Assembly (NCBI GenBank): GCA_009760855.2
Contig: WPIO01000007.1
Location: 2,443,501 to 2,507,500 of the forward strand
DNA: 64,000 nt
Reading direction: 5' to 3'
Source: Cristatella mucedo
Taxonomy: Eukaryota > Bryozoa > Phylactolaemata > Cristatellidae
Within the stretch, counting starts at the first letter, position 1. Each line of letters opens with the position of its first letter. The position numbers and the translations under genes are program-made. Shown piece by piece: positions 4,381-23,214 of the stretch. The notes beneath the pieces are model-generated. The model was given only the letters and a program-made list of their open reading frames with translations. It was not told the origin of the DNA and did no database searches.

Positions 4381-4399
4381 CTGCGGCAAAAAATTACCA

Positions 4400-5650
4400 G
4401 CCCTGACGCACGAGCAATGGGGGAAATAGCCTGAACGCCTGCGTTGTAATTAGGGTCGTGGATGTACATACCTAGGATTAATCCAAGGATAGTGGACACA
4501 TGACAGTGCACAAGGCAGTAACCAACTAGAGGACTAAAGTGCGCCCGTCGAGTGGCTCACCGCTCTACATGCCCATTCGAGCCAATGGAGCATTACGGGT
4601 CTCTCCTTTGGTACTCCCAGTGTTCTATTGCTTTAGATCTCTGACGACTATTGCAAGAATCTGAAAAACTTAAATAATAGTTTTTTAAAAACCATAAAAA
4701 CGTTAGCGCTGCTACAACCAAATAACAATGCAACTTATATGTGTTTTCGGATTACAATTTTCTAAAACTTTTCAAGTTCAGCCTAACAGAAGAAAAATGT
4801 GATTGAGAGGGAAGCGATAAAGCAAACCTGCCTGGCCTCCGCTAAACCACTGTCCGCAAAAGGCTTTGAGCTCGCCCTGCTCTGGAAACGACGTCGAGCC
4901 TGTGAGTAAGCTGCAAATTACTTTTTACTTCACCTCGGAGTAATACAATAAATCTCGGAAATAAGAAGCAACCAGACAGACAAAAATCTGTCCACAGTAA
5001 TTGCTAGCAGCTCCAGACGGATTAGATTTTCACTTCTGCAGCTTAATAACTTTGGTCTCCAGCTCAGAGGCAATGACTAGTATATATAAACGCAGCTATC
5101 CGGTGTAGCTTCGTTAAACTAATGTGCGACTGTATGCCACCACACCACGGAAATTTGCCTAATTAGTGACAACCAACAAGCCGCCACCGGGGGGAACTAA
5201 GCGAGGAAGAATAGGCCAGAAAAAGCATTAGTCAAAGGTTATGTTTTTCAAAGTTGTTCTTTTTAGAATTACAGCCGTTCCCGTGTTTTTCTCTATTTCT
5301 CTTGCGCTATTTGTTTGCTCGTCCATCTTTTTGAACAGCCTCGACCGACCCTATGCAAACGACCATTGTTCATTTTGTACATGTTTAAGCCAATACAAAG
5401 TTGCTTGTGCGGCAGCAGTTATTTTGGGTGGTTAGACCCTTTTCAGAATACTGTGCGGTGTCTGAAAATTCGTCTCAGTCTTAGCCTTTCTTAAGCTTGT
5501 TGCTATTTCGGAGCTATTTTGCAGTGATATCTGCATTTAGGCATCTTCAAACGTTAGCCATTTGAGATGGCATTTAGTTGCAAATGAGTACAACGTGGAA
5601 CTGAGTCCTACAGGAATCTACACTGAGGGTACAGAGAAAAATTCTCACCT
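4400..5650. other. Intron sequence, nothing recognised
   Basis: AT-rich stretch without exons, recognisable transposon or simple repeat. A short Phe/Leu-rich frame at 5241-5435 has no supporting feature. Confidence 0.5.
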
Positions 5651-5868
5651 CTGCCCACAAAGCCTTTTTTTATACCTAGCTAAACTGCTGCCACCAGTTT
5701 CAGACTCCTCATACCCTCAGGACCTCGACAGAAAATAAATGAGGCATTCCGTCTTTTCACTTAAGACTATGGTGACAAAACGCTTGAGCTCCGGAGGCTC
5801 TAGACTATGGACCTCACGTCCACAATTCTTATGCAGCTGCGTCTTAGCTTTGTAGAGTTGTACGTACT
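5650..5868 (+). mobile_element. L2-like LINE ORF2 C-terminal fragment, degraded
   Basis: Plus-strand segment matching the C-terminal region of the copy at 13360-13570 (ATACCTAGCTAAACTGCTGC, ATACCCTCAGGACC). It converges with the minus-strand copy that starts at 5870. Confidence 0.55.
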
Positions 5869-5869
5869 A

Positions 5870-7510
5870 AGGATGTAATGTAATGTATCTGCGTCAGTAA
5901 CTCCACAAAGTCATAAAGACCATGTGGGTGTTACGCAGGAGAGTTTTGTATAGCGCACTCACAGCCTAAGCGGCTTTCGGTACGCATTCGGTACCCAACA
6001 GACTTCGTAGTCTATAAGCGGAGGAAAGGGACAGCTAATTTATTGTCCACACAGGACCTGAGGGCGCGAACAGACTGAAACTGATGCAGCAGTTCAGCTA
6101 GGTACGAAGGAGCCAAGCCGTGGCGGGCCTTGTGGGTCAGCGTAAGAACTTTGCTCTGTATCCTTTGCTCAACCGGCAACCATCCTAGCTCTTTCAGCAA
6201 AAGTGACACGTGCTCAAACCGCTGGGACTTGAAGACCAGCCTTGCAGCCATATTCATAGTCCGCTGTAGTGGCATAATGGCTTTCTTTGGCAGCCCAGCC
6301 AAAAGGGAATTACAATAATCAAGCCGAGACAGAACTAAAGAGCTAGTTAAATTTTTACAAGCCACTGTGGGAGACAGCTTCTAATCTTGGATAGGGATCG
6401 GATGTGATGGCTAGCTGTAGAGGCAGTCTTCTGAATGAAGCTTTTGAAATTGAGGCAGCTGTCGAAAACGACACCTAAATTACGAGCACGTGGTGAAGGT
6501 CGCACAATAGCATCACCTATTAGAACAGCAAAGCCTTTTAATCCAGCCACACGCTTAGGGTGTCCTATGAGCAGCAGTTCGGTTTTATCGTCATTTAATT
6601 TCAGGAAGTTTTCCGACATCCAGGATACAATTGAGTATCGTCAGCATAGAAGTGATATCCTATTCCATGGGCCTTAATCACTTTTCCCAGAGGTTGTGTA
6701 TAAATGGAGAACAGCAAGGGACCGAGTACAGACCCTTGAGGGACTTCACAGGTGACCCTTCTCATGTCTGAGACCTGACCCCCACACGACACGGATTGAA
6801 CACGATCAGACAAGTATGATTTAAACCACGCCAGTGCTTCGTCTGCCAGACCGATCGTTGTTCTCAATCGTTCAAGCAGAACTTCGTGATCAATGGTGTC
6901 GAAGGCAGCAGACAGATCTAGCAGAGCTAGGGCAGTGACATTCCCGTCGTCGTTGCCACGTAGAATGTCATTGTTAACACGGAGGAGAGCAGTTTCAGTA
7001 GAGTGCTGCCTCTTGAACCCTGATTGAAATGTTTCTGATATTCCATTATTTTCAATATGTTCAACTAGCTGCTTAGCAATAATTTTTTCAAGAATCTTTG
7101 ACAAGAATGGAAGAAGGGAAACTGGACGATAGTTTGCTAGGACCTCTGCGTCTAATCCAGGCTTTTTAAGAATAGGTCTAACGATTGCCGATTTGAAGCC
7201 CAAAGAAGCATTAAAAATCTTGGTTATGGCAGGGCTAAGTTGGTCTGCAAGTGAAGACCACAGAGATGAAGGTATAGGGTCTTCAGGAGACGAGCTCTTT
7301 TTGCTAGACCTTATTAAGGCAGCCACATCACAGGCAGAAACATCGGAGAATCTTTTAAGAAAGGTCACAGGTTGAGGAACGGCGATTGATTTGGTCGGAG
7401 GGGGCTTAATGGAGGCACGAATGTGCACAATTTTTTCAGTAAAGAAGGCTGAAAACTTTTCGGCTGAGCCCTTAATATCTGGGGAGTAAGACCTCACAGC
7501 ATTGGCCAGT
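5870..7510 (-). mobile_element. L2-like LINE with reverse transcriptase (TAATGTA-tailed subfamily)
   Basis: Best copy of this subfamily. From 7510 leftwards the frame reads NAVRSYSPDIKGSAEKFSAF, then RT motifs SLLPFLSKILEKIIAKQLVE, ALLDLSAAFDTIDHEVLLER, PQGSVLGPLLFSIY and the catalytic box FYADDTQLY. Two further frames carry ENFLKLNDDKTELLLIG and LDYCNSLLAGLPKKAI, so at least two frameshifts separate the parts. The 3' end at 5870-6000 holds CCACAAAGTCATAAAGACCA and a TAATGTAATGTA tail. The 5' part with the endonuclease is missing. It is not an active element. Confidence 0.88.
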
Positions 7511-7599
7511 AAAATGATAATGGTAGTAATCATAAGACATTTACGTAGCATCCTAAAAAAAACTAAACATTTCTTTGGGCAATCTTGCATATATGCTGT

Positions 7600-8160
7600 A
7601 GAAGAAACAAGTTCATTGATCAGTGATAAAATGCTCAGTGCCATCATGCATAAACACACTAAAGACAATTCACAAGGACCCAGCAAATGCTGCTAGGAAC
7701 AGGTGTGTTTTTAGCTTATTTTTAACTGTTAAATCGGGTGGGGGAGGGGTGTCACGACGTCAGTCGGAGCGAGTTCCAGGCTTTGACAGCACATAAACTT
7801 AAGGCACGATTCATAAAGGATTTGACTTAGGTTTGAAGCGCAGCTCAACGCCTTGAATCAGAAGAACGACAGTATGTATGTATCCTGTCTGTAACTCCAC
7901 AAAGCCACAAACACTATGTGGGTGGTAGGAAGATGAGTTCTCTATAGCTCACTCAAAGCCTAAGCTTTCGGTACGAATTCGGTAGCCAACAGTGTATGGT
8001 GCTTAAATCTGATTGAAAAGTAGTCTGGATAGGTGGGCTTGAGCAAGAGAATGAAGGATCTTAAGTTGAGTGACAAAACATTGAAGTCGATATGCTACTT
8101 TATGAGGAGCCGGTGCAAGTCAGTAAGAAATGGTGTAATATGACAACTGCAACGTTCATG
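7600..8160 (-). mobile_element. L2-like (ATT)n-subfamily 3' region with nested tail of the other subfamily
   Basis: 7620-7860 and 8000-8160 match the minus-strand 3' region of the (ATT)n subfamily (GAGTTCCAGGCTTTGACAGC, GTGAGTGACAAAA-like). 7872-8000 is the 3' end of the TAATGTA subfamily (CTGTAACTCCACAAAGCCAC), apparently inserted in it. Confidence 0.6.
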
Positions 8161-8653
8161 ATGCTACTATAGATGTTTAGGTAGAATTCAGATATATGAT
8201 CTCCTAAACTATTCAAATGACTTAATTATGCAAATTATATCTATAAGTGACATTTTTCATTTTTTTAACCATTTTTCAATGGAAAGGTCGTATGGATCAT
8301 GCTGATACAAAGTTAATTTGCAAAGGCTGGAGCTTGGGTGAATCTAAAAAAGTTTAAGTCAAGAATATCTGTAAATAGCATGGTGAGTTTAGGCTAGCAT
8401 AGGCCACGAGTGTCCTGAAAAGTGTTGCCTCCTGCCGTATGAATAGCCCTGTGGCAACAAAACGTTCCAAGTATTTTCTTGTCCCACTCCTAAATATAAA
8501 ATACAATCTTTTAGCATGGGATTCTTTTTACTGATGTAAAACATCTGCTTGGCTTGGCTAGTCTTTAAATCACGACCGTCGATGGAAGCACATTGATGGC
8601 ATGCGGGTATCGCTGCTGCAGAGGGTGCAACCTAGGAGCCGGCGGCCACTCAC

Positions 8654-8856
8654 CAGGGCAACTTGGTTATGAACTCGTGAGCGTTTGCCTCCATGGCAGC
8701 CTTCTCGATATCCTGCTGTGTCACGCCATCACGTCCATAGCGGATGTTCTCGGCGATCGTGGTGGCAAAGAGCACGGGCTCCTGGCTCACGATGCCGATC
8801 TGGCGCCTCAGCCAGCGCAAGTTCAGCTTCCGGATGTCCTGCCCGTCCAGCTCCAC
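8654..8856 (-). pseudogene. ABCB1-like: Gene B NBD1 Q-loop exon, one base short
   Basis: Reads [20 protein letters not shown], then [20 protein letters not shown] and a helical part to FITKLP. It is 203 nt versus 204 in gene A because of a missing base next to the donor GTGAGT. The body is otherwise open. Confidence 0.85.
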
Positions 8857-8966
8857 CTGTGACGAGGAGATGGTACAACATAACAACAGAAGGAGCCAAG
8901 CGGCCATAACGCTGTGCTGCTGCACAGATGTGTTGCAGGTCTGGAGGGATGCAAAGTCGGCCGAAC

Positions 8967-9097
8967 CTGTCCGCTCAGCGGGTCGTAGAAACCTCTGTAT
9001 GAGCTGCACGGTCGGTCGTGCTCTTGCCGCAGCCGCTCGGACCGACGAGTGCTACGGTCTGGCCAGAGCGGACTTGCAGAGTCAGCCCTCGAAGAAC
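8967..9097 (-). pseudogene. ABCB1-like: Gene B NBD1 Walker A exon with insertions
   Basis: Reads [19 protein letters not shown], then PSGCGKSTT, then loses frame. Relative to gene A there are four extra bases just after Walker A, duplicating GTCG on the plus strand, and one extra A in a short run, 131 versus 126 nt. Splice sites are intact. The surrounding DNA is almost identical to gene A. Confidence 0.85.
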
Positions 9098-9343
9098 CTG
9101 CCCACAGCGAAAGGCTGCCAGTGCATGTGCTGCTGCCTGCAAAGCTGCTTTACTTTGTGCCAGCAGCAGCACGGTGTGGCTGAAAAGGGCACTTGCCAGC
9201 AACGAGTCACTGTCAACAGTAGCAACAGTTTCAAATGTGTGATGGCAGATATGTGCATTTAGTTTACAGAAAAATAAGAGCAGATGAGTACCATTAGCCT
9301 GGCAACAGTGACAATGGACTCAATGCAAAGTGATGCCCAATAC

Positions 9344-9453
9344 CTTCACGTCAGGCCTCGATGGGTAGTTAAAGTGGACATCGTGAAATGTGATATTGCC
9401 AGAAATTGATTGTGGTCGCTCCCCTGCTTCGGATTCACTGTTAATGTGTGGAC
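9344..9453 (-). pseudogene. ABCB1-like: Gene B NBD1 first exon, frameshifted
   Basis: Acceptor TACAG and donor GTATTG are kept. In the second frame it reads SEAGERPQSISGNITFHDVH, then [10 protein letters not shown], clearly homologous to gene A 55707-55597. It is 110 nt instead of 111; one base is missing near the start. In the phase set by the previous exon a TGA appears close to the exon end. Confidence 0.8.
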
Positions 9454-9884
9454 CTGTAAAGGACCTAGATCGGATGGCCATTCACAGTCATCCCACCATA
9501 TTTATGCCGGCTAGTCAACTCGGCAAAAAAACACTTTACAATCGTTATAAGAATGGTCAATTGCAAGTACATGTATTTGCACATATAGAAACTCACCGCA
9601 AGAAATTGTTTGCATCTCGAATCTTGCCATAAATTACCTCTGAATTTGTGGACTCTTTTGTCGTGTCATTGATAAATACAGAAAATGTTTGGGATTACAG
9701 TACACAGTAATTTTCATGCACCAGGTGCCCAAAACGTTCATGCTGAGGCTATCTCCCGTATAATACCATTGCATGGTCGGATATAGACAGCTTTGTTTGA
9801 AATGACTATTAACACATCCTGCTCTTATGCCTAAACCTTGTGCTCATTTTCACCTTCTTGTCCGTATAAAAGATAAGAGATAAA

Positions 9885-10030
9885 AGAAACTAGCCGATTT
9901 AACAGCCTTTTTTATAGCAGCCGAAAAGACTATCACCAGCCTTTGCAGCGATAATATAAGATTGCACATCAAAGGATTCGGACCTGCGACCTCGGCACCG
10001 AGGTCGGGAAGAGCAGCCGCCTAATGTGAT
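9885..10030 (-). mobile_element. tRNA-derived SINE
   Basis: Minus-strand copy: TTTAACAGCCTTTTTTATAG at the tail, then AAAGGATTCGGACCTGCGAC, a B-box-like block, and CTCGGCACCGAGGTC. The same family occurs at 38425 and 40640. Confidence 0.65.
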
Positions 10031-10049
10031 ATACAAAGTAAAATAAATC

Positions 10050-10700
10050 TGATGGACTAATAATAATACACTTGGTATACCACCCTCAGAGAACTCAATC
10101 TCTTTCTAGGCACTTTACAATTGCTGCAAAGGAAGCACGATCGAATGGTTAGTGGTAGCACGCTGAATACACAACAAGAATAACAAGGTTTGGGCTGACA
10201 TGCACAGGGTCAGCGTGCAAGTATGGTTAGTGGCAGATGCACAGTGTCAGCATGCATTAGCACATAAAGGAAGAATCCCTGTAAACCACTAAATGCTGTG
10301 AAGAATAGGTGCGTTTTTTGTTCTTTTTAAATATGGACAAGTCAGGAAATGCCGTGAGTGAGTGAGAGCACGTCGGGAGTGAGTTCCGGGCTTTGGAAGC
10401 ATACGAACTAAAGGCACGGCCTCCTTTGGATTTGAGATTTGTAAGAGGTATGGGTAAACAGTTGGATTCCAAAATAAGCGAGTGGTACGATGCTTAGCCT
10501 GGTGGTGGTGGAGTAGATCTGATAAGTAGGCTGGAGCCACAGAATGAAGGGACCTAAAAGTGAGTGACAAAACCTTGAAGCCGATTCGTTGCTTGACTGG
10601 GAGCCAGAGCAGGGTCGGCAAGGAGTGGTGTGGTGTGGCAGCTGCTACGCTCACGACAGACAAGTCTAGCTGCACGGAAGAGATTCTCAGTATTCCTTAA
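10050..10700 (-). mobile_element. L2-like LINE 3' end and ORF2 C-terminus
   Basis: The minus-strand frame 10675-10289 reads ATPHHSLPTLLWLPVKQRIG, then FKVLSLTFRSLHSVAPAYLS, the conserved L2 C-terminal block. The 3' UTR runs left to an (ATT)n tail at about 10060. Confidence 0.85.
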
Positions 10701-11134
10701 TTTTTGTAAATCAGACAAACAGCGGATTTAAGTTCCTACCATAGTGTGGTCATCGATATATTTCAAATTTTCAAGATGTTCAGTCCATGGCTGGGAATAC
10801 CTAAAATGGGGCACTTTCAAACGCTGATGTTGAAAGAGCGATGTTGTATTACAGTGGTTCCGGCAGCGGCAGGTCTTATGGAGTCTCACTGAGACACGAG
10901 CGATTTCCTCAACCCATACATATACGAGAGCTCGACGAATCACAGAAGACGTCAAGATATATAACAGATATTAATGACCTGCCGCTGCACTCCGTCAGTG
11001 GCTTAATTACTAGCCACAGGTGAAGAGTAGGCTGTGCTGTGTCAATGGTGTAACTATTGGCCGTAATCGAGGCATACATTAGCCTCAGGGCGCTTTGCTA
11101 ATTGCAAAAGCAGAAGGCGCAGGTGAACATAACA

Positions 11135-11172
11135 GCAATAATAATTAGAATAATAATAATAATAATAATGGT
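11135..11172 (+). repeat. (AAT)n microsatellite
   Basis: ATAATAATAATAATAATAAT-type run in intron sequence. It may mark an eroded LINE or SINE tail. Confidence 0.8.
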
Positions 11173-11476
11173 AATTCGTGCACATACAGGATAACTAAAA
11201 CTTTTTCTAAGCAATTGGACCCAAACTAGAAAGGAAGCAAATCAATTGATTTGTGATAACATGTAAATGCATAAGCATGCATAAGCACACAGTAGACAAG
11301 TCGAAAAGACAGAAAAGGCTACCAGAACATGAAGTCTAATAGCACTTTTTACATCATCATCAAGTCGGGTGATGATACAATTGTGGTTGTGTTTCTCTGT
11401 GTGCATAATTAAGATCGCTGGGAATGCCGGCACACTGCCGGTGCAGGCAGACCGGTAGTGCCCTAAGGTAGTGTTT

Positions 11477-12181
11477 TAATGATGAGGAACAGAGCGCCAG
11501 GCAGTAGCTCTAGAGAGAGTGTCGTAGAGCCAGCCTGATATACACCATGTCTATGGTACTGGGTGCACCGGGGCGGGTCCACAGGGTGATTGATAGCAGT
11601 GTCTAACAAACCCCCAGGGTCTAACAGCTGGTGGCTGTGGTCTTGGGACTGGCGGTGCCCCTCTGTAGTCTGGTGGCTGTGGTTTATCCACAGGTCGGCT
11701 TTGTCCTCCCTCTAACCCACTGGGGTGAGCTGTGGCTGGGAGGGAGTGGGAGAAGAGGGAACGCCAACCTGAGAGAGAACGCTTGTGTCGGGGGGGGGGG
11801 GGGGAGCGCTGCAGGTGCCAGCGAGAATACAGTTCCTGCGAACCAGCTTCTGTGTTCTGCCTGCGCCGGCGTATGTACTCAGTTGGAAGAGCATTGTTTA
11901 ATCTACAGCAATATCGGTCACTGTGAATTCCAGGGTTTGGGAATGTTGTGGTGCCACCTAGCACACAGCAACAGGCGGTTGGCTGACGAAGTTTTTAGGC
12001 TTGGCCCGAATGGGCCAACCTCGTGCAGTGGCTATTCAGCCCGCCCATTTGGCTGACCACTGCTATCAATCACCTGTGGACCCGCCCCGGTGCACCCAGT
12101 ACCATAGACATGGTGTATATCAGGCTGGCTCTACGACACTCTCTCTAGAGCTACTGCCTGGCGCTCTGTTCCTCATCATTA
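11477..12181. mobile_element. DNA transposon with 125-bp terminal inverted repeats, non-autonomous
   Basis: The left arm 11477-11601 is repeated in inverse orientation at 12058-12181, differing by very few bases. With TA on each outer edge, ends read ATGATGAGGAACAGAGCG and its complement, consistent with a TA target duplication as in Tc1/mariner-type elements. The 456-bp interior has no transposase, a long G run (11791-11805) and a tRNA-like segment. It is probably a MITE. The superfamily is uncertain because it rests only on TA. Confidence 0.88.
11864..11933 (+). other. tRNA-like segment inside the inverted-repeat element
   Basis: GTACTCAGTTGGAAGAGCAT resembles a tRNA D-arm/A-box, and GGTCACTGTGAATTCCAG sits at T-arm/B-box distance. 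The anticodon stem would need a 10-base loop and the T-loop lacks TTCGA, so it looks like a tRNA-derived relic, not a functional gene. Confidence 0.4.
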
Positions 12182-12239
12182 CAACTGACTACTTTCAAAT
12201 GTGCATCTCTTAGCGGTATTTCGCCCTAAGAACACAACA

Positions 12240-12780
12240 GGGAACATTAAAACCGAAGAGATCTTCAAAGATTTAGAGTTTGGTTTGAAGAATCGCTCTA
12301 AAGGACTTTAATCAGAAGAAAGGTTGTTACAATGAAGAGCCTGATAGTATTTTAGATGGAATGAAGAAATTTAAAGTGAGTGACCAAGCCTTCAACTCTA
12401 TACACGGCGTGATTGGGAGCCAGTGCAAGTGGGTTAGAAGTAGTGTGATGTTACAGCAGCAACGTTAACGAGGGAGACTTGCCTAGCAGCAGAGTTTTGC
12501 ACCGTCTGTAAGCTTCTTAGTGCTCAATCAGAAAGGTCTGCAGGTAGTTAGTTATGTAAGACTAGCAAGATTGTCGCATGGAATCGCTTGATATGGTATC
12601 CTTATTCCTAAGCATGCCCAAATTTTGCAATGGAACAAAGCTGAAAGTAGACATGCTAGACCAAGGAGCTGCTAATGTGGTTATCCAATTAAAGGACATT
12701 TTGGATGACCGCATCCAGATTCTACCTCGTGGAGGCCATGCTGAGAGGACACGCTGCTGTGGTCATGTGGGTTTAAACTA
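12240..12780 (-). mobile_element. L2-like LINE ORF2 remnant
   Basis: The plus strand shows GTGAGTGACCAAGCCTTCAA, GGGAGCCAGTGCAAGTGGG and GTGTGATGTTACAGCAGCAA, the complement of the L2 C-terminal region. Frames are broken. Confidence 0.65.
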
Positions 12781-12984
12781 ATTTGGGGGTTAGGTTTTCC
12801 AGTCTCGGACTGAGCTGGTTGCATTGTCATTGAATCTGTGATAATTTGCTGCCAACGAACGTCAAGAATGCATCTGGAAAGAAATTTGAAAGAGCTTGTG
12901 CCTAGCCGGAAAGCAGGGAGGGCATGAATGCAACTGCTTGTCACAAGCATAACAATGAAAGCCTAGATTGCGCTTCCTGCTTAA

Positions 12985-13865
12985 ATTTGCAAGATATCAT
13001 ATAGGTTGTTGTGCCATCATCACCACGTGCTCGAAATTTAGGTGTTTCGACACCTGCCTAAATTTTAAAAGCTTTATTCAGAAGACTGCTTTTACAGCTT
13101 GCCATCACGTCCGATCCCTATCTAAAATTAGAAGCTGTCTTTCACAGGGCTTGCAAAAAATTTAACTGGGTCCTTAGTTCTGTCTCGGCTTGATTATTTT
13201 AATTTCTTTTGGCTGAGCTACCTAAGAATGCAAGTAGGCCACCACAAATAGCTATGAATATGGCTGCAAGGCTAGTTTTCAAGTCTCAGAGGTTAGACCA
13301 CGTGTCTCCTTTGCTAAAAGAGCTAAGACGGTTACGGTTGATCAACGGATACAGAGCTCAGTGCTTTCGCTGACCCACAAGTCCCGCCACGGCTTGGTTC
13401 CTCCATACCTAGCTGAACTGCTGCATCAGTTTCAGCCTCTTCGTGCCCTCAGGTTCTGTATGAACAATAAATTAGCTGTTCCATTCCTCTGCTTAAAAAC
13501 CGTTGGCGACAGAAGCTTTAGCTCTGCAGGTCCTAGACTGTGGAACTCACTTCCACAATTCTTAAAAAAATGACAACTGCTCCTCTGCTGCCGACTACGG
13601 CTCATCGCTCCCAGTGGTCCTGAGCTGCTACTTCTATGCTACTAGCTACCTCAACCGCTCTCCTAAATTTGCTATGCTACCCACTTTCTCTTTGTTGCGT
13701 GAGATGAAGTCTGTTGGCTAGCAAATGCGTAGCAAAAGCCACTTAGGCTGTGAGTACGCTATACATAAAGAACTCTCCTGCCAGAACACCCACTTGGCTT
13801 TGTGGAGTTACAATTACTATGGCTTTGTGGAGTTACAGTCAGAGATACATTACATTACATAGGCT
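12985..13865 (+). mobile_element. L2-like LINE 3' half (TAATGTA-tailed subfamily)
   Basis: Frames read CLNFKSFIQKTAFTACHHVR, then SLSKIRSCL, and later SRHGLVPPYLAELLHQFQPL with WNSLPQFLKK at the C-terminus. The 3' UTR has GGCTTTGTGGAGTTACA twice and ends ACATTACATTACAT. Confidence 0.85.
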
Positions 13866-14182
13866 TTAAAAAAATTGTATTGATGTCCATTGGTGTCTAG
13901 GTTCTGTAAATTCTTTCTGAGAACAGACATCGTCCATTGCACTACCAGTGAGGCCCAGGCGAGAGGGCAGGTTCTTAAGATTGAGCTCACCAATGTTATC
14001 ATAAGCTGCCAAGAGATCCAGAAGAACCATCAGTAGCTCTACCCAAAGTCAGCCTTCCTGAAAAGATTTTTTTACACTCACAGCCGTGTACGATCAAGTG
14101 AGATTTGCTCGAAACCTGTTTCTAATTTAACTTGCTAGGTTGGATATTTTGAATAGAAGTACAACTAGTCTGCTACTAATCC

Positions 14183-14362
14183 CTCTAGAGCAGTGGTTCT
14201 CAACCTTCCTAATGCTGCGACCCTTTAATACAGTTCTTCATATTGTGGCCACCCCAACTATAAAATTATCGCGTGCAAAATGTATAAATGCGTGTTTTCC
14301 GATGGTCTTAGGCGACCCCCAAAAGGGTCGCGACCCTCAGGTTGAGAACAGCTGCTCTAGAG
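14183..14362 (+). mobile_element. SPIN-like hAT non-autonomous element with 8-bp target duplication
   Basis: The element body is 14191-14354 (164 bp). Ends are CAGTGGTTCTCAACCT and the complement of CAGCTGTTCTCAACCT, near-perfect terminal inverted repeats. It is flanked on both sides by CTCTAGAG (14183-14190 and 14355-14362), a perfect 8-bp duplication matching the nTCTAGAn hAT preference. Internal blocks GCTGCGACCCTTTAATACAG, GATGGTCTTAGGCGACCC and AAAGGGTCGCGACCC are those I know from SPIN-group (Space Invaders) elements. No transposase is present. Confidence 0.9.
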
Positions 14363-15109
14363 TCTCGTGGCTAACTTGGCAAAATATTATCCTCTTAAGT
14401 CTAATCCCTAGCTTGTCAAACGTTTCTACGCTTTCAATGTTGAGAGGATGCTTCCGGTGAATTACACTCCTCAAAAATCGCGACACTGTGAGAATTCAAA
14501 AGTGAGCCCAGAAGCCGCCCAAGCAGTTTTTAAGTTTTCACTAATCGCGAGAAAACCTAGGAGATAACTTACACCATTTGTACCTTATAATAGTTTTCAA
14601 TGAAAATCCTGTTTTGCACTGTCAGTTTGGTAGGTCATAATTGAATAAGAGTGGCAGTTTTGGGCAAGCCCCAGGGTGTAAAGAGGTTTCAGCAGCACTA
14701 ATTAATATTTAATAGTGACGTTCATCTGCGCACTAATAGCACAGCACAACGAACATACATGCACCCAGTCAAAGCCCGAGACAGGAGATTGACATTCTGC
14801 TGTTTTCGACCATCATGCTTGCATACACGGTAATGTAGCTGACCCCGAATTCCAGGATTTGGTGACTGTCAGCCTTAGCAACAAATTGGTGCCATTGCAA
14901 CTCGTGGCGGGCAGTTAGTTTTAGTGTTAACCTCAAACTGTGCCCGAGAGGTGTTCACTTTCCTTTTGATGTCGATGAGGGAAACAAATCGAACAAGTGC
15001 TCCTGCACACCATGCAAGCACCCGCATGAGTGGCTGCCCAATGCACAGCTGTACATACACGTAAACACTCACACACATAAAACAAACACACAGTCTCACA
15101 CACACATTT

Positions 15110-15139
15110 TCTCTCTCACACACACACACACACACACAG
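15110..15139 (+). repeat. (CA)n microsatellite
   Basis: CACACACACA run preceded by other CA-rich sequence from 15060. Confidence 0.9.
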
Positions 15140-15164
15140 CTACTCGTGACCTCTAAACAGTATT

Positions 15165-15262
15165 GCTTGCAGCCCAGGGGTAAAGCACTCTCACTTAACG
15201 ACTCAGGTCGTGAGTTTTAGTCCTTTAGCAGGCGATTCTGTATTGCTCCCTGCAAGCAGAGG
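15165..15262 (+). mobile_element. tRNA-derived SINE fragment
   Basis: GCCCAGGGGTAAAGCACTC, then CAGGTCGTGAGTTTTAGTCC at B-box distance, followed by GGCGATTCTG and CCCTGCAAGCAG, the SINE body order. Confidence 0.5.
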
Positions 15263-15264
15263 GG

Positions 15265-15985
15265 ATCCAGAGTATTGACGTGAATGGTCAAAGATCATCT
15301 GAAGTACCTCTGAAATATGGAGTACCTCAGGGCTCAGTGCTAGGTCCGGTTCTTTTCACGGTTTATACTCTGCCTCTTGCTGATGTGATTGCCAAGCACA
15401 ATCTAGGCTTTCACCTCTATGCGGATGACACTCAGTTGTACCTTTGCTTTGATCCCTCCCAGCCTTCGAGCACCTCAAATTCTCTCAACTCACTAGCTGC
15501 ATGCATTGATGACATCCGCACATGGATGGCAGCAAATTTTCTAAAACTTAACGATGATAAAACTAACTTACTAGTTATGGGCAAACCCAGTGTGATCCAG
15601 AGATTGGAAAGGCTGACTCTCAAAATTGGCTCTGCCAGCATATCTCCTGTCGAATCAGCTCGGAATCTAGGTGTCATATTCCAAAGCGACCTCTCGTTAG
15701 ACGACCACATCAGCTCCACAGTCAAATCCGCCTATTTTCAGCTTCATAACATTGCTAAAATTCGGGCTTGTTTAGATAAAGATACCACGTCCAAGTTAGT
15801 TCATGCATTCGTGACATCCCGTCTCGACTTCTGCAACTCACTGCTCACTGGCCTACCAGCATGTGCGATCAGGCGATTGCAGCTTGTGCAAAACTCAAGT
15901 CAAGGCTCGGGCAAAACTCAAGTCAAGGCTTGTGCAAAACAAAAGTCAAGGCTCGGGCTTAGCTGGCAGCTTTGTCTATTCTAAG
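15265..15985 (+). mobile_element. L2-like LINE reverse transcriptase fragment, longest open frame
   Basis: An open frame of 234 codons from 15280 reads YGVPQGSVLGPVLFTVYTLP, the catalytic FHLYADDTQLY, then AANFLKLNDDKTNLLVMGKP and SRLDFCNSLLTGLPACAIRR. It ends in a triplicated block (15885-15960) that replaces the rest of ORF2. It is the least damaged RT piece of the (ATT)n subfamily here. Confidence 0.9.
15885..15960 (+). repeat. Tandem triplication within the L2 copy
   Basis: Three imperfect copies of a 24-base unit (CAAAACTCAAGTCAAGGCT) in a row. L2 homology stops here and only a small block recurs at about 16140-16235. Confidence 0.75.
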
Positions 15986-16134
15986 CGTCCAAGCTTCTGT
16001 AACTCTCTCTCCGTTCACGTCGTCCTGCTTCTTCATTAAGACCCTTATAAATGTTGCCCAGCTCACACTATGCACACTGTAACTAGGCTGTCTGCCGAGC
16101 ATGTCGAAACTGCAACATTACACGACGTCTCGTT

Positions 16135-16682
16135 AACCTGCAGTGGCTGCCCATCGAGCAGCATATCAGTTTTGGAATTCAGTAACTTTTGACTTCAAGC
16201 CACTCAATTCTCTTGCTCTGGGCTGCTCGACCAATAACTCCCCACACCTGTGTACACATAGATATAGATGAGGGTGCCACGTGGCCGGTTCCATCTCTGG
16301 ACCGACCCGAAGCAGCATGTACGATGGCTTCCTACATTACCTGCCCTCTTCAATATTGATATAATTGGCAGTCTTTTGAAAGGTCAAGTCATGACTCCTC
16401 CCTGTGCATACTCCCCCCCAACTTGGGTATACAACGCGTCAAACTGACCTCATTTTTCAAGAGGTCATCAAACTAGTGGCATTTACATGCTCTTGGACCG
16501 TCCTCTGTAAGCTGATTTAGCAGCCTCATATATGATGTGAATGGACAAATATCATCCGAGGAACCACGGAAGTATGGGGGTACCTCAAGGCTCCATGCTT
16601 TGGTCTGGTCCTTTTCACGGTTTGTACTCCCCCTCTTGCCAGTGTGATTTCCAGGCACAACCTGGGCTTTCACTTCTATGCC
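16135..16682 (+). mobile_element. Two small L2-like LINE fragments
   Basis: 16135-16235 matches the CACTGGCTGCC-GTCAAGCA region. 16510-16682 matches the RT entry (GGTACCTCAAGGCTCCATG, GGGCTTTCACTTCTATGCCG), stopping inside the catalytic box where the next SINE begins. Confidence 0.65.
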
Positions 16683-16910
16683 GTGCTGGTTTGGACAGTG
16701 GTTAAGGTGTAATGGCTCACTAGGTATGGTGGTTGCTTTTCACGACCTCGGGCCCCAAGGTCGTGGGTTCGAATCCTATGTTGGGCGATCCTTTATCGCC
16801 ACTGCAAGCGGTGGTGATAGCCGTAAAGGCTCTTCCATCGCTATACAAAAAGAGGCTGTCAAATCAGCTAGTATTTTTTTCTTGCCCCGACCAAGGTCAA
16901 CTTGAATGCA
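16683..16910 (+). mobile_element. tRNA-derived SINE, best copy
   Basis: A-box-like TGGTTAAGGTG at about 16697 and a perfect B-box GGTTCGAATCC at 16766-16776, then GATCCTTTATCGCCACTGC, GTAAAGGCTCTTCCATCGCT and ACAAAAAGAGGCTGTCAAAT. Relatives in either orientation lie near 405, 9885, 24150, 38425, 40640 and 49400. Confidence 0.75.
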
Positions 16911-16919
16911 ATTGAATAT

Positions 16920-16985
16920 TAAGGTCGTGGGCTCGTGCCCCGGGGCATATGTGAAGTGCCTGAATAAAGATTAAGTTCTCTTAGG

Positions 16986-16988
<3 letters not shown>
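16920..16988 (+). mobile_element. SINE with L2-like 3' tail, fragment
   Basis: GGTCGTGGGCTCGTGCCCC (B-box-like) followed by GAAGTGCCTGAATAAAGATT and AAGTTCTCTTAGGGTG, the tail shared with the (ATT)n L2 subfamily. It runs directly into the microsatellite. Confidence 0.65.
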
Positions 16989-17051
<63 letters not shown>

Positions 17052-17129
17052 TGTATGCATGCATGCATGCATGCATGCATGCATGCATGCATGTATGTAT
17101 GTATGTATGTATGTATGTATGTATGTATG

Positions 17130-17165
<36 letters not shown>
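16989..17165 (+). repeat. Symmetric compound microsatellite (AT)(GTAT)(GCAT)(GTAT)(AT)
   Basis: About 177 bases in five blocks arranged as a mirror: AT, GTAT, GCAT, GTAT, AT. All units are near-palindromic, so the tract can form cruciforms. Long Tyr/Ile/Met-rich frames over it are artefacts. Confidence 0.95.
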
Positions 17166-17166
<1 letters not shown>

Positions 17167-17169
17167 GAA

Positions 17170-18240
17170 CTACAAATCCATGCACCCTGCACCACTCTCC
17201 CGTCGGACTCGGGTCGTTTATTTGTGCCTACCATGAATACCGTGCGTCAGTTGCTACTCATCTAAAGCACATAGCTTTCTGCCGCTTGACATTATGACGT
17301 CAACAGACTCAATGACATTGAACGCAAAACTAAAAATCCGTCTATCCCTTGCAGCATATGCTCCGTCCACGTGAATTGCCTTTTAAGTGAGTATGCATTC
17401 TCCTGTTTGAATGTTTTCATTGCTAATAAGTTAATATGCTTTTTTCATTCTGCTTCCGTGATTTGCCTAGAAAAAAGACTTAATTCACGGAGCCGTCTAT
17501 TAAAATTCATTATTGTGATTATTGTTGCTTACAGTAGGCACGGCATAGTCAAACCACCCTTCTTGCTGGAGGGTAATCTGCAGGTAGCCATGTAGGCAAC
17601 ACACTAGGTGCAGCAACCATCTAGGCATTATAGCATATTTTAGCCACTAGTCGGTACAATAGCAAGCACGTGCTCTAAAATCAAGCCTGGCTGGAGGGGG
17701 CAACACTCAAGATGGCTTCCAAAGGCAGTGGCAGCCTTCTTGGATATAATAAATCCATGCACTTCTTTCTTCCCTTAAAATGCATCAACAAACCTCAAAC
17801 GATTTTAAAGATTTTTTTGCCCATCGGCATGTGTATAGGCGTTCCCACTAAAGACATGTTGCAAAAGGATAATATTCTGTCTTGCTAAAAACCAGGCTAG
17901 CCCATTGCAAAAATAGTCACAGGCAAATGGGTAGTAACATGAGTGACCAGAAAACGGTCAAATTAGATTTCAGCCGAATGCTCTGAATCGCTCACACTGA
18001 TACATTACAAAATTCTTATAACAGTCAGGAAGATCAAGATGCATTTCTATGGCAGAGCCGTGGTAGCCGAAAGCAGAAGCACATGTGCCTTAAAATGGAC
18101 CACCTTTCATTCAAGTGACTACATTGAAAAAAGTGAAAGAGAGAAAAGAAAACAGCTGGAAACTCATCTGCTGCTCCTTATCGGAGCCTTGCTCATTCCA
18201 CAACGTCACCGATAAGTGCTCCGACCGAACGCCGCTGAGT
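17170..18240. other. Gene B intron sequence, nothing recognised
   Basis: No exon, transposon or RNA signal found on either strand. Confidence 0.5.
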
Positions 18241-18249
18241 TGAACTCAC

Positions 18250-18363
18250 CCTGTCAATAATCTGGTATACAGCAAAAGCTGCTCCTCGAGCTGTCGCCAG
18301 ATTGCTGATGTTTGGTGCGGCGTTACCAAGGGAGAATGCAGAAGTGATGACACAGAAGAATAT
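18250..18363 (-). CDS. ABCB1-like: Gene B exon 9: TM6
   Basis: Acceptor TGCAG, donor GTGAGT, 114 nt. Reads IFFCVITSAFSLGNAAPNIS, then NLATARGAAFAVYQIIDR. It is the last clearly intact exon of gene B. The next intron is 8.8 kb and full of transposons. Confidence 0.92.
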
Positions 18364-18534
18364 CTGCAAATAATAGAAGTGCCATGAGAACTCCCTGCTC
18401 TAGGAAACTATTGCCAAAAATACCGAGGGATACAATCATGGGCACACGAAAGGGTGGGCCGGAGGTATGAGAATTTGCTTTCACCGCTTCATAATTCCAT
18501 CTTTGCAAAGTCAAAGTGCTTGGAAGTGAGAGAA

Positions 18535-19975
18535 GTTAGCATTGCTTCGGGTATACAACGACATACTTAGGAATGTAGACATGGGTAGAGTATCTCTGCT
18601 TGTTTTGCTCGATCTTTCGGCAGTTTTTAATACTATCGATCACCAAGTCCTTCTTGAACGCCTCTCATCTCGCCTGGGCATCACTGGCACTGCGAATGAT
18701 TCAGGTCCTATCTCAGTGGAAGACTCCAGAGTATTGGTGTGAATGGATAAAGATCACCTCAGGAACCTTCTAAATATAAGGCTCCTCAGAGGTCTGTGCT
18801 TGGTCATGTTCTTTTCACGATTTATACCCTCCCTCTAGCCGTTATGGTTGCCGGGCACAACCTAGGCTTTCACTTCTATGCGGATGACACTCAGTTGCAC
18901 CTTTGCTTTGATCCCTCCCAGCACTCCAGCTCGATAAATTCTCCCAACTGCCTTGCTGCATGCATGGCTGACATCAGCACTTGAATTGTAGCAAACTTTC
19001 TCAAATTTAATGAAAATCAAACCAACTGACTAGTTAAGGACAAACTTAGTGTGATTCAAAAATTGGAAAGGTTAACACTCAGAATCGGCTCTGCCAGCAT
19101 ATCTCCTGTTGAATCTGCTCGAAATCTAGGTGTAATGTTTCAAAGTGACCTTTCATTAGACGACCACATCAGCTCCACAATCAAGTCTGCCTACTTTCAG
19201 CAACATAACATGCTAAAATTCGGGCTTGGTTAGACAGGAATACCAAATCTAAATTGGTCCATGCATTTGTGACATCCAGTCTTGACTTCTGTAACTCACT
19301 GCTTGCAGGCCTATCGGCCTGTGCACTCAGCTGGTGCAAAACTCTACCGCTAGGCTTGTTCATCGTGACCGTCGCAGTTGCCATATTTCACCACTTCTCA
19401 CTGACCTGCACTGGCTCTCAGTCAAGCCAAGCTCAGTCAAGTCATCGACTTCAAGGTTTTGTCACTCAATTTGAGGTATGTTTCATTCTTTGGCTCCAGC
19501 CTACCTATCAGATCTACTCTCCCTTCAGGCTAAGCATCGTACCACCTGCTTTTCGGAATCTAATTGTTTAATTTTACCTCGTACAAACCTCAAATCTTTC
19601 CGAGACCGTGCCTTTAGTTCATATGCTCACCAAGCCTGGAACTCATTCCCGACTTGCGCCACGGCATCCCCTGACTTGACTGCATTTAAAAAGAAACTAA
19701 GAACTATCTATTGATCACAGCATTTTGTGGGCCGATGTGATTCGTCCTATATGTGCTTATGTGTGCTGACACCGTGCATGCTGCCACTAACCATACTTTC
19801 ATGCTGACCCCTGCATGTCACCCCTAACCATGTTATTCCTGTTTTTTATTGAGCATGCTGCCACTAACCATTCGATTGTGCTTACTTTGCAGCAAATGTA
19901 AAGCACCTAAAACAAGATTGAGTTCTCTGAGGGCAGTTTATCAAATTTATTATAATTATTATTAACATCACCTGG
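18535..19975 (+). mobile_element. L2-like LINE, RT through (ATT)n tail, degraded
   Basis: Frames read LLDLSAVFNTIDHQVLLERL, GFHFYADDTQLHLCFDPSQH, LRIGSASISPVESARNLGVM, then RTTCFSESNCLILPRTNLKS and SYAHQAWNSFPTC. The 3' UTR ends GAGGGCAGTTTATCAAATTT and an AT-rich tail. Stops and frameshifts separate the parts. It lies antisense in the large gene B intron, close to exon 9. Confidence 0.88.
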
Positions 19976-20400
19976 CTTTACCATTCTGTCTGGCCCCAGT
20001 GCCGGCTCTAGCCCTGGCACCTCCGTGCAACTAAGCATGCTCTATTATACAATAAACCGAGTTTGCCTCTTGCTAAGTTCTCACAAGCCTGGTGACAACA
20101 ATTGTTTTCAGTTTCACAACTAACTGAACTACTGTGAACACTGTCGTTAATAATAATTTAAATTTGTACACCCACGGTTTTAGCGTAGCAAAGTAAGGGA
20201 GTTCGCTCAGCTACGGGGTTCAAGCAAGTGGAGAAAATGATGTAACGACCAATGACTTCCGCCTACTTCTACTGAAGTCTAATGCTTTAAACACCAGGCA
20301 CAATTACTGCCAACGGGCCAGCAATCAACAGTGAACATTACACAAGCGAAGAGCCGCCAATGCTTCTATGCATTACTGCATCGATGTAATGAATACTTGC

Positions 20401-20572
20401 CACCACCATTGTGCCGACTGTGATTTCTCCAGCAATCACAAGTGTGGTGCCGTACCAGAAGCCCAGTGCATATGCAGCAAAAACGACGAAGAACAAATAG
20501 CCCAGGCCAGCTCCGGTGGTGATGCCCTTCTTGATACCGAAATCTCTAGCCTCCTTCAAGAGTTCGGCATAC
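20401..20572 (-). CDS. ABCB1-like: Gene B exon 8: TM5
   Basis: Acceptor TGCAG. Reads YAELLKEARDFGIKKGITTG, then AGLGYLFFVVFAAYALGFWY and GTTLVIAGEITVGTMVV. Donor TG|GCAAGT (GC type) or G|GTGGCA three bases upstream. It is more diverged from gene A than exons 6 and 7. Confidence 0.88.
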
Positions 20573-21846
20573 CTGCACAGACAGTGTGCAAATTACCAGT
20601 TGACACTTACTTTATGTAGCTGCTATCGACATGGGAGACTAAACACATGGAAGTAAAAAACCTAAAAAGCAAGCACAAAGTAAGACTGCAATCGAGATAC
20701 AGGTGTTCCGAGACTGAACAGAAGCTGTCAAGCAAACCAGTTGTCCCGATTGGTTTTCACATTATCGATGCTTGAAAGCTCAGCTCGGCTCTAATGCAAA
20801 TCTCAACTTACTGCCGTGCACAATCACCCGTGTCCAGACAGTGCCCACACTAGGAGGTATGCATAGGAAGACGATATGGACACCCTCTTCTACTGCATCT
20901 GGCACATTTATTTTCTACTACAGTGAGGGAGCCGATTTCTACTATCGAATAGGCAGGCCGGAACGGGCAGGCCGGACAGACTTACGAGGTATTCATGAGG
21001 CATTCTGATTCATGAGGCCCGCTGCATGTCAGTGCCTGTGTGGATACTTGTGTGGATACTGTGTGGATACTCACTTGCAACCATTATCCACATGTTGGGT
21101 CAAAACAGGGCAGCGGCCTTAGAAGGCAACGCATTGGATCAGTTCGCTGTGCCTCCCAGTCTCAGCCACACCGAGCATGCATGCCTACGAGCGCTGGCTT
21201 CATCAGTCCAGGAGTATTTCGAGTTCGAGCTACATTATTATGAGCCGACTAAAGGGCTAACAGTGCTGGCCTTAGTTTTAGTGGGCTCACTAGGCTATTG
21301 GTGGTCATGCGCATCCCTCACACTGACAAACGAGCAACCACTCGCCAGCAAGATGGTGTAACAATTGCAGCCCTATTACAGGCGTGGCCCTGCTTTTTGT
21401 GTGTGGACCATTGCGGATTCTGGCGTTTGCTCGCATTGTCTGCTGACCTCCACAACACTCTACCGGGATGACGAATGACGAATACCGACGATTAATTTCA
21501 GGTAGCACGACGGGTGTGCAAAAACAAGCAGAAAATCCTTGGAGGGAGGCCTCGCATCATAGTGGTGTGCAACAAGGAACGTGAAGATGCAAGCTGCCGG
21601 CCACCGCGACTTTGCAATCCCCTGCACGCCTCCATGCCATGCCTCAACACGGCTGAGCGAGCCACTGCGTGCCCCTTACCCTGGCGAGTCGACTAGCAGC
21701 GATGCCCCAAGCAATTGCATTGAGCAGTGAACGGCCACAACTGATGCTCGCTCGGCAGCGGAAAGACGATCGCAAGCACCGCTCAAAAGCATAGGGCCAG
21801 CTTCCGGTGCACACTGCCATTTGAGCACGCTGTCTCATGCACGTGC
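20573..21846. other. Gene B intron between exons 7 and 8, nothing recognised
   Basis: No repeat family or exon seen. A short GTGTGGATACT triplication occurs near 21038-21072. Confidence 0.45.
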
Positions 21847-21971
21847 CTGGTGCTCTCTTTCTTCTGGCCACCGAAAGCCGCCACGGTGCGAATGGACGAG
21901 AGGACTTCTTCGGCCACGCCTCCGGCGCACGCGTACGCCTTCTGCTCCTTGCTGGTCACGTCCGACGTCAC
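21847..21971 (-). CDS. ABCB1-like: Gene B exon 7: ICL2, apparent GC donor
   Basis: Acceptor TCCAG, 125 nt. Reads [17 protein letters not shown], then [20 protein letters not shown]. Only a donor at AG|GCACGT keeps frame with YAELLKEARDFG in the next exon, as in gene A. The exon is nearly identical to its gene A counterpart. Confidence 0.85.
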
Positions 21972-22163
21972 CTGGACGAGCCAACCGTATAGGTGGGCAA
22001 ACCGAAGCGGAAAAGCTGAAGCTCATGCCCATGGGGACAAGAAGCTGGTACGAAATGGGTACTGACGCATCGGACGACGTGTGCATGCACTTCATGCAAC
22101 CGGGCCAAGCTGTCGACACAGCAAGTCAGATGACGGAGCACTAAGCGCACTGGCGCCTTGCAC

Positions 22164-22341
22164 CTTGGCCATGATCATGGCGCCGACGACGAGCAGCGGG
22201 CTGCAGGCGAGAATGACGAGCGTGAGCTTCCAGCCGAGTCCGAACGAGAAGCTGACGACGATGCCCGCGATGCTGGCGGCAGTGAACTGGAAGAACGTGC
22301 CCAGCTTGTCGCCTATGCCGTCCTGGATCTTGTCGATGTCG
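22164..22341 (-). CDS. ABCB1-like: Gene B exon 6: TM3-TM4
   Basis: Acceptor CCAG, donor GTGCAA, 178 nt. Nearly identical to the gene A exon at 62856-62679: DIDKIQDGIGDKLGTFFQF, then two membrane segments around GWKLTLVILACSP. Flanking introns do not match gene A. Confidence 0.93.
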
Positions 22342-23214
22342 CTGGAAATCAGACTCCAGTCGTTATCGACGACTGAACGATGGCCTTGCATACCTCTGAT
22401 GCGCCACTATACGGCCAAGTCGCCAAGATTGAATGGCAAGAGCCAAGGGCATGCAGCACTTTGCACGGGAAGCAAGTGTGCGCCAACGTGGAAGCGACGG
22501 ATCCACTCAAAATAGCACGGCCATCGACGGTTCAGTTCGTTTGAAATTCGTCGTGAGTTCCATAGCAGCGTCTTCTCTCGGCTTACTTTTAGGTTTCTGC
22601 AAGCGCGACCGGACCGATGCTTGATTCCTTTCCAAAATAAACCCTCTGTTATCAAACCTCGGCGACCCCTAGGGAAAGCCTGAAAATACTCCTGAGTGCT
22701 AGCTAGCTATTGGCTTGGCGATCGGTAAACCACAAAATGCCCCCCCCCCCGTTTTAGCAGAGGTAAGGCCAGGAGCAATTATAGCAGCTTGCCGGCATGT
22801 TACAATACATGCAGCTGGATAAATGCTCTCTACTCTTGCCGTGTCCACCCTTTTACTTATTCTTCGCGTGAGCATCTGACATGACTGCCAGTCGCAAACT
22901 CAATTGTTGAAGGAGCAGGCATGATGATTTGCAATTTCGAGTTGCCTTCCCTGATCGTAACCTTGTGGACTGCCTTCGATCAAAGGGATCCATTAAACGG
23001 TGCCATGCAATTGGGGGCTCTGACGCTGAGCAAAGCAAAGCAGCTCACTAATTAATTTTAGCCTTTGTGTCACAGCTGATAGAGCAGCATGTCTGCAAGT
23101 CTCTGCCCCAGTCATTTTCTAAAAACTCTTGAATGATCCTTAAAGAACCGGGTGTGTCTGCCATTGAGCATGTGCAAGCACTCCTCGAACGACCTACTGG
23201 ACGTTCGAGTGAAT

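What the first reader, a model, noticed from the sequence alone, without database searches (positions are those of the whole stretch)
14183..14362. SPIN-like hAT element with perfect 8-bp target duplication
Ends, duplication CTCTAGAG and internal blocks (GATGGTCTTAGGCGACCC, GGGTCGCGACCC) match what I know of SPIN (Space Invaders) elements, a hAT group known for horizontal transfer between tetrapods and some invertebrates such as a triatomine bug and a pond snail. Finding one in this genome may mark another host. The intact duplication suggests a single clean insertion, not contamination inside the element.
Basis: partly seen in the sequence, partly recalled or inferred. Interest (0 to 1): 0.88.

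Follow-up and report, generated by a model that had tools for sequence, protein, structure and literature searches.

The report
SPIN-like jumping DNA, bryozoan-like genome
A short "Space Invaders"-type jumping element, closely matching a repeat scattered through mouse and rat DNA, sits in this invertebrate genome (most likely a moss animal) as one of a large family of copies, which points to DNA that crossed between very distant animals.

Summary
Confirmed. At 14191-14354 lies a 164-bp non-autonomous hAT element with 16-bp inverted repeats and a perfect, palindromic 8-bp duplication CTCTAGAG. The 572-Mb host genome holds a large family: 70 distinct places scored, over 2,000 unscored first-look candidates. 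Of 39 further places fetched, 12 have exact and 26 near-exact duplications around a TA core; six lie in a host repeat whose other copies are uninterrupted. ABCB1-like exons of the host group with the bryozoan Bugula neritina (bootstrap 100) and reject a vertebrate. Best reading: SPIN entered a bryozoan-like lineage by horizontal transfer and spread as a short derivative. None of the 40 best scored copies exceeds 96% identity to the consensus; no autonomous SPIN was found in the 64 hAT loci read. A known family in an apparently new host phylum.

The parts
14183..14190 (.). left copy of the 8-bp target-site duplication CTCTAGAG
   Evidence: duplications within one mismatch in 26 of 39 fetched places, with a TA core
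14191..14354 (.). 164-bp non-autonomous SPIN-like hAT element (MITE)
   Evidence: 152 of 164 aligned positions equal the 187-bp family consensus; too short to encode a transposase
14191..14206 (+). left terminal inverted repeat CAGTGGTTCTCAACCT
14339..14354 (-). right terminal inverted repeat, CAGCTGTTCTCAACCT on the minus strand
14217..14223 (+). subterminal motif GCGACCC, left side (possible transposase-binding motif, inferred)
   Evidence: sequence
14301..14318 (+). internal block GATGGTCTTAGGCGACCC, overlapped by mouse primers (Ate1, Elmod1, Kcnq1ot1)
14325..14336 (.). palindromic subterminal block GGGTCGCGACCC, right side; a 22-bp deletion seen only at this locus (and its second assembled copy) lies just before it
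14355..14362 (.). right copy of the 8-bp target-site duplication CTCTAGAG
9323..9451 (-). exon of an ABCB1-like gene copy on the low-coordinate side of the intron that holds the element
   Evidence: tblastn
18247..18363 (-). exon of the same gene copy on the high-coordinate side of that intron
   Evidence: tblastn

Best explanation
The feature is one copy of a non-autonomous SPIN-family (hAT, Buster group) transposon in an intron of an ABCB1-like gene of an invertebrate, most likely a bryozoan. A SPIN element entered this lineage by horizontal transfer (inferred). An internally deleted derivative of about 187 bp kept both ends and was cut and pasted by SPIN transposase supplied in trans (inferred), preferring targets with a TA core such as CTCTAGAG and duplicating 8 bp each time (shown). 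It reached at least 70 scored places (shown) and perhaps on the order of two thousand (suggested by unscored first-look candidates). Spread then seems to have stopped, since none of the 40 best scored copies is more than 96% identical to the consensus. The window copy later lost 22 bp, in a stretch flanked by a 7-bp direct repeat CGACCCC (deletion shown; mechanism inferred).
For: Ends and duplication. Family: 40 places scored of 2,098 first-look candidates; with the consensus as query 41 matches of 2,336 candidates, 40 of them at 94-96%; together 70 distinct places by my count. Duplications: 12 of 39 exact, 26 of 39 within one mismatch; in those 26 position 4 is T in 25 and position 5 is A in 26. 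Empty sites: 6 of 39 copies lie in a host retroelement whose paralogues lack the insert, cleanest for L033 and L042. Same repeat in rodents: of four printed oligos that were not search terms, three exceed the best of 300 shuffles against the family consensus: 18 of 20 (mouse Ate1 R2), 18 of 21 (rat Avpr1b 8F), 15 of 20 (mouse Kcnq1ot1 F), with shuffle maxima 14-15. Recalled rodent sequence typed, before the family was fetched: 175 of 181, first 85 of 85 and 80 of last 81. Host is not a vertebrate: ABCB1-like exons 0.599 identical to rat, UFBoot 100 with Bugula, vertebrate placement rejected.
Against: No SPIN reference sequence was available, so the family name rests on recall plus primer-length matches. 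The primers were found by exact 12-15-mers taken from the window or from the recalled form, so only the parts outside the search term and partner primers count as independent. Of the four partner primers, Pqbp1 +3965 gives 17 of 30 against the host consensus, inside its shuffle range (maximum 18), because it falls where host and recalled rodent forms differ; Kcnq1ot1 F (15, maximum 14) is only just above its range. Against the window copy itself Pqbp1 +3965 and rat 8F are both within their shuffle range. No transposase with SPIN ends was found. The bryozoan assignment rests on one gene, and by plain identity abalone (0.668) is above Bugula (0.649).
Confidence: 0.9

Rival explanations
1. Vertebrate contamination: the element comes from vertebrate DNA in the assembly or a chimeric contig.
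For: The family consensus is almost identical to a recalled rodent repeat and matches printed rodent oligos.
Against: Host-specific repeats flank the element on both sides. It lies between exons of an invertebrate gene. Six of 39 family copies sit inside a repeat shared with the window. Copies are spread over many contigs, most of them megabases long. A second contig (C436) carries the same insertion with 99% identity over 2,180 bp.
Confidence: 0.01
2. Vertical inheritance: an ancient hAT MITE kept since the common ancestor of bryozoans and tetrapods.
For: Terminal repeats like CAGTGGTTCTCAACC occur in several hAT-Charlie families (recalled), so ends alone are not specific.
Against: Non-coding sequence would not stay at about 97% (to the recalled rodent form) while ABCB1-like proteins fell to about 60% identity. 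The 39 sequences measured are K2P 0.033-0.123 from their consensus, so the burst is far younger than the animal phyla (inferred).
Confidence: 0.03
3. A related but distinct hAT-Charlie/Buster family (for example an OposCharlie1, hAT1 or MER5-like MITE) rather than SPIN itself.
Against: The match runs beyond the ends through internal blocks also present in mouse and rat oligos, and 85 of 85 bases at one end equal the recalled SPIN/URR1 form.
Confidence: 0.06
4. Horizontal transfer did happen, but the direct donor was not a tetrapod: another aquatic invertebrate such as a snail, or a shared parasite or virus, delivered SPIN. (Compatible with the best explanation; it concerns the donor only.)
For: A Biomphalaria glabrata hAT transposon of about 1,000 copies is reported to have significant identity with SPIN (PMC5440852, passages); SPIN is known from Lymnaea (recalled).
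Against: No snail copy could be compared here.
Confidence: 0.5

Closest known systems
SPIN (Space Invaders) non-autonomous elements of tetrapods, and URR1 of rodents (names and sequence recalled; rodent oligos read in papers)
   Same: Ends CAGNGGTTCTCAACCT, 8-bp duplications with TA core, internal GGGTCGCGACCC and GGTCGCCTAAGACCATCGGAAAACAC blocks; 175 of 181 aligned positions with the recalled form
   Different: Interior differs: the 187-bp host form lacks a stretch of about 40 bases present in the recalled 225-base form and has a few bases of its own; host is an invertebrate outside tetrapods
SPIN_NA elements of the triatomine bug Rhodnius prolixus (PMC11614815, passages)
   Same: Non-autonomous SPIN in an invertebrate, attributed to horizontal transfer
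   Different: Rhodnius is a blood-feeding insect (fewer than 5 SPIN copies reported within its piRNA clusters; genome-wide number not seen); here the host looks like a bryozoan and the family is large
SPIN-related hAT of the snail Biomphalaria glabrata, about 1,000 copies (PMC5440852, passages)
   Same: Lophotrochozoan host, large copy number, no intact transposases of DNA elements detected in that assembly
   Different: Different phylum; no sequence available here to compare
OposCharlie1, hAT1 and other horizontally moved elements (named in PMC11614815)
   Same: Horizontal transfer between tetrapods and Rhodnius
   Different: Not compared: no sequences held

Membership tests
hAT superfamily, non-autonomous | 8-bp target-site duplication | tested here: met
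   Window copy exact; 12 of 39 fetched places exact, 26 of 39 with at most one mismatch, 13 of 39 with two or more. One of the 12 (L030) is a second copy of the window locus. Ends were chosen to minimise mismatches including the duplication, which favours matches slightly.
hAT superfamily, non-autonomous | short terminal inverted repeats of about 15 bp (value given in PMC11008031, passages) | tested here: met
   16 bp, 14 of 16 equal in the window copy
hAT Buster group | duplication of the form nnnTAnnn (recalled) | tested here: met
   T at position 4 in 25 of 26, A at position 5 in 26 of 26 left copies with at most one mismatch
SPIN | sequence identity to a SPIN consensus over the whole length | tested here: inconclusive
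   No reference held. Recalled rodent form: 175 of 181. Printed rodent oligos agree.
SPIN | same repeat present in rodent genomes | tested here: met
   Twelve mouse and rat oligos from eight papers; eleven of twelve exceed the best of 300 shuffles against the family consensus, Pqbp1 +3965 does not. Eight of the twelve contain a search term, which inflates their score; of the other four, three exceed. The two non-rodent controls reach 15 of 20 (shuffle maximum 14) and 13 of 20 (maximum 15); the first has only 3 of 8 positions equal outside the search term.
SPIN | autonomous partner encoding a Buster-type transposase with the same ends | tested here: inconclusive
   PF05699: 138 matches, 34 loci read; PF14291: 46 matches, 30 loci read; none carries SPIN ends. 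Most loci reach only about 1.5 kb beyond the match, and 104 and 16 matches respectively were not read.
SPIN | patchy host distribution explained by horizontal transfer | not testable with these tools
   No other animal genomes are searchable here

The most novel reading that the evidence does not exclude
SPIN invaded a bryozoan: a sessile, colonial, filter-feeding aquatic phylum with no blood-feeding or parasitic link to tetrapods, where one short derivative multiplied to a large family, perhaps some two thousand copies, while its consensus stayed almost base-identical at both ends to tetrapod SPIN. This would extend the SPIN wave to a new phylum and argue for transfer through water, shared micro-organisms or intermediate aquatic hosts such as snails.
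Probability: 0.72. Interest if true: 0.72.

Novelty: new member of a known kind. Interest (0 to 1): 0.62.

Why it matters
SPIN is one of the clearest cases of repeated transposon transfer between animals, but routes and vectors remain unsettled. A further invertebrate lineage, probably a new phylum and aquatic, with a large family gives a new point for testing how and when SPIN moved, and whether blood-feeding vectors are needed at all. With many copies, empty sites and a consensus, the timing becomes directly testable once a second bryozoan genome is compared.

Tried and rejected
Exact-word scans of viral contigs and of prokaryote genomes with pieces of the element: 1 viral contig and 20 prokaryote loci; the local alignments cover 16-31 bases and none extends over the element, so I read them as chance. 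Four further viral patterns gave none. BLASTN against phages, plasmids and E. coli: none. Rfam: none. No empty site was found in the paralogous intron of the second ABCB1-like copy, because the near flanks do not match there. The reverse-transcriptase ORF at 6601-7692 did not place the host. A first FastTree without Bugula put the host with Lingula and three unnamed proteins at support 0.80; adding Bugula changed this. The mollusc constraint in the AU test was badly specified, since three unnamed proteins nested among molluscs were forced outside, so its huge penalty is not used; that run also warned of too few replicates. The abundant hAT transposase with intact frames was considered as the partner and rejected because its ends are TAGGGCTGTACC, not CAGTGGTTCTC. 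Searches on SPIN and invertebrates or bryozoans listed no paper on SPIN in bryozoans; searches matched 762 and 375 papers of which 25 each were listed, only listings were seen, and only open-licence papers are held. Oligo searches listed 20 papers; I read passages of 12. The other 8 are, by title, on Bordetella (two), wheat, a cell line with AChR, breast cancer cells, Staphylococcus, shrimp and cytomegalovirus, and were not opened. One rodent paper read (PMC11247941) was not scored, and PMC2837401 repeats the Ate1 primers. The last search (7 papers) was not followed up because the cap on different papers had been reached.

Full report
What is there. Positions 14191-14354 hold a 164-bp element flanked by the perfect 8-bp duplication CTCTAGAG. 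Its ends are 16-bp inverted repeats, 14 of 16 equal. The 24-nt inverted repeat reported includes the duplication because CTCTAGAG is palindromic. A scan for this architecture found three hits in the window and none in 30 first-order Markov copies; the two other hits lie in one long inverted repeat.

Where it sits. It lies in an intron of the first of two tandem ABCB1-like gene copies on the minus strand, between exons 9323-9451 and 18247-18363. Repeats shared with the rest of the window flank it on both sides, so it is embedded in host DNA.

The family. After many busy answers the host genome was searched: 572,011,866 bases in 688 contigs. Of 2,098 first-look candidates 40 were scored, giving 44 rows; four rows are second pieces of a listed place. 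I fetched the 39 places other than the window itself. One (C436, locus L030) carries the same insertion and is 99% identical over 2,180 bp; it is taken as the other allele or a duplicate and was left out of the consensus. A pair of ends was assigned in 39 of 39, but in seven of them one end has 7 or more mismatches over 22-26 bases (L031, L053, L057, L058, L061, L062, L064). Duplications are exact in 12 of 39 (L030 among them), at most one mismatch in 26, two or more in 13. In the 26, position 4 is T in 25 and position 5 is A in 26. The exact duplication CTCTAGAG recurs at three other loci (L033, L052, L054), which looks like target preference.

Copy number and age. With the consensus as query 41 matches were reported of 2,336 first-look candidates, 40 at 94-96% and one at 85%. 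Eleven of these overlap, so 70 distinct places have been scored; the figure of about two thousand rests on unscored candidates. The consensus is the same with or without the window copy. K2P distances of 39 sequences (window plus 38) to it run from 0.033 to 0.123, mean 0.068; these were chosen by likeness to the window copy. Ignoring gaps the closest is 96.8% (L032). No very young copy appears among those scored, so spread seems to have ended. The window copy differs at 12 of 164 positions and has lost consensus positions 124-145, a deletion shared only with L030 in the set.

Empty sites. Joined flanks of 6 of 39 copies (L033, L042, L051, L054, L056, L058) align across the junction with uninterrupted related repeats in the window or other loci. 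Base-level views were made for four. L033 (CTCTAGAG on both sides, CTCTGGAG once at the empty site) and L042 (CACTAGAC on both sides, CACCAGAC once) are clean. L056 is compatible. L058 has a damaged right end.

Is it SPIN? No reference was held and the original SPIN papers were not available. Two lines were used. First, rodent DNA printed in open papers. Searches with exact 12-15-mers found mouse and rat primers (passages). Against the family consensus, eleven of twelve rodent oligos exceed the best of 300 shuffles; Pqbp1 +3965 (17 of 30, maximum 18) does not, and Kcnq1ot1 F (15, maximum 14) and rat 7R (17, maximum 16) are close. Eight of the twelve contain a search term and are therefore favoured. 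The four that do not are Ate1 R2 (18 of 20), rat 8F (18 of 21), Kcnq1ot1 F (15 of 20) and Pqbp1 +3965. The two non-rodent controls reach 15 of 20 (maximum 14) and 13 of 20 (maximum 15); the first exceeds its shuffles by one, through the search term, with only 3 of 8 positions equal outside it. Against the window copy, rat 8F (13 of 21) and Pqbp1 +3965 (18 of 30) are within their shuffle range. The mouse Kcnq1ot1 qPCR pair and RACE primer come from one mouse transcript and fall in one element in a consistent layout: the forward primer and the RACE primer overlap near the left end, and the reverse primer faces them from the internal block. This includes the 22 bases that the window copy lacks, so that part of the recall was not copied from the window. 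The distance between the two Pqbp1 sites as printed (129) is larger than in the recalled form (102), which I cannot explain beyond an insertion in that mouse copy. That rodent URR1 equals SPIN is recalled.

Host. Eighteen ABCB1-like exon translations of the second gene copy were joined as a query. In an IQ-TREE of 44 sequences the window pairs with Bugula neritina (Bryozoa) at ultrafast bootstrap 100, and that pair joins Lingula and three unnamed proteins at 74. Nine residues are shared by window and Bugula alone; the next best is two. AU tests reject vertebrates, Owenia, and the Lingula group without Bugula; the SH test rejects only vertebrates among these three at 5%. Percent identity alone is highest to Haliotis (0.668), with Bugula 0.649 and rat 0.599, so the bryozoan reading depends on the tree. 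It is one gene, and phoronids, entoprocts and flatworms were not sampled by name.

Mechanism. Shown: insertion with 8-bp duplication at TA-core targets, many copies, no room for a transposase gene in the MITE, later decay. Inferred: mobilisation in trans by a SPIN transposase that bound the terminal repeats and the GCGACCC-type subterminal motifs; entry by horizontal transfer, because non-coding sequence is about 97% alike (to the recalled rodent form) while ABCB1-like proteins are about 60% alike. Donor and direction are unknown.

Autonomous partner. PF05699 gave 138 matches; 30 loci plus four weaker ones were read. PF14291 gave 46 matches; 30 loci were read. None has SPIN ends. Most loci reach only about 1.5 kb beyond the match and most weak PF05699 matches were not read, so absence is not shown.

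Literature. SPIN in Rhodnius (PMC11614815) and a SPIN-like family of about 1,000 copies in Biomphalaria (PMC5440852) were seen as passages. Lymnaea as a host is recalled. Searches listed nothing on SPIN in bryozoans; these are listings, capped, and of open-licence papers only.

Verdict. It is a new host record, probably a new phylum, of a known horizontally moving family.

Noticed in passing
G000 loci L069-L102 (for example L099-L102): A different, apparently young autonomous hAT family: about 3.2 kb, L099 98-99% identical to the three other copies compared, ends TAGGGCTGTACCGG, an 8-bp duplication read in L099, open frames up to 635-642 aa with BED finger and hAT dimerisation domain; 55 of 138 PF05699 matches share the same 76.8-bit score.
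   Followed up: partly
L129, L131-L136: Another hAT (DUF4371) family: six loci alike over about 2.7 kb at 91-97% (L134 over 2.1 kb), frames up to 472 aa among them.
   Followed up: no
window 2476-22352 and 37140-62867: Two tandem ABCB1-like gene copies on the minus strand with exons up to 95-96% identical in DNA; the first copy has a diverged nucleotide-binding exon near 4219-4390 (74%) and may be partial or run off the window.
   Followed up: partly
window 11473-11585 and 12073-12185: Long inverted repeat, 113 nt at 99%, 487 nt apart; foldback-like, family not identified.
   Followed up: partly
window 6601-7692 (-) and 15229-15984 (+): Fragments of reverse transcriptases, probably non-LTR retrotransposons; the second belongs to a repeat that recurs in the window near 18.7-19.9 kb and 56.3-57.6 kb and into whose relatives several SPIN copies have inserted.
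   Followed up: partly
G000:C436:25770-27949 (L030): 36.6-kb contig carrying the same SPIN insertion, 99% identical over 2,180 bp; likely an uncollapsed allele, so assembly copy counts may be inflated.
   Followed up: partly
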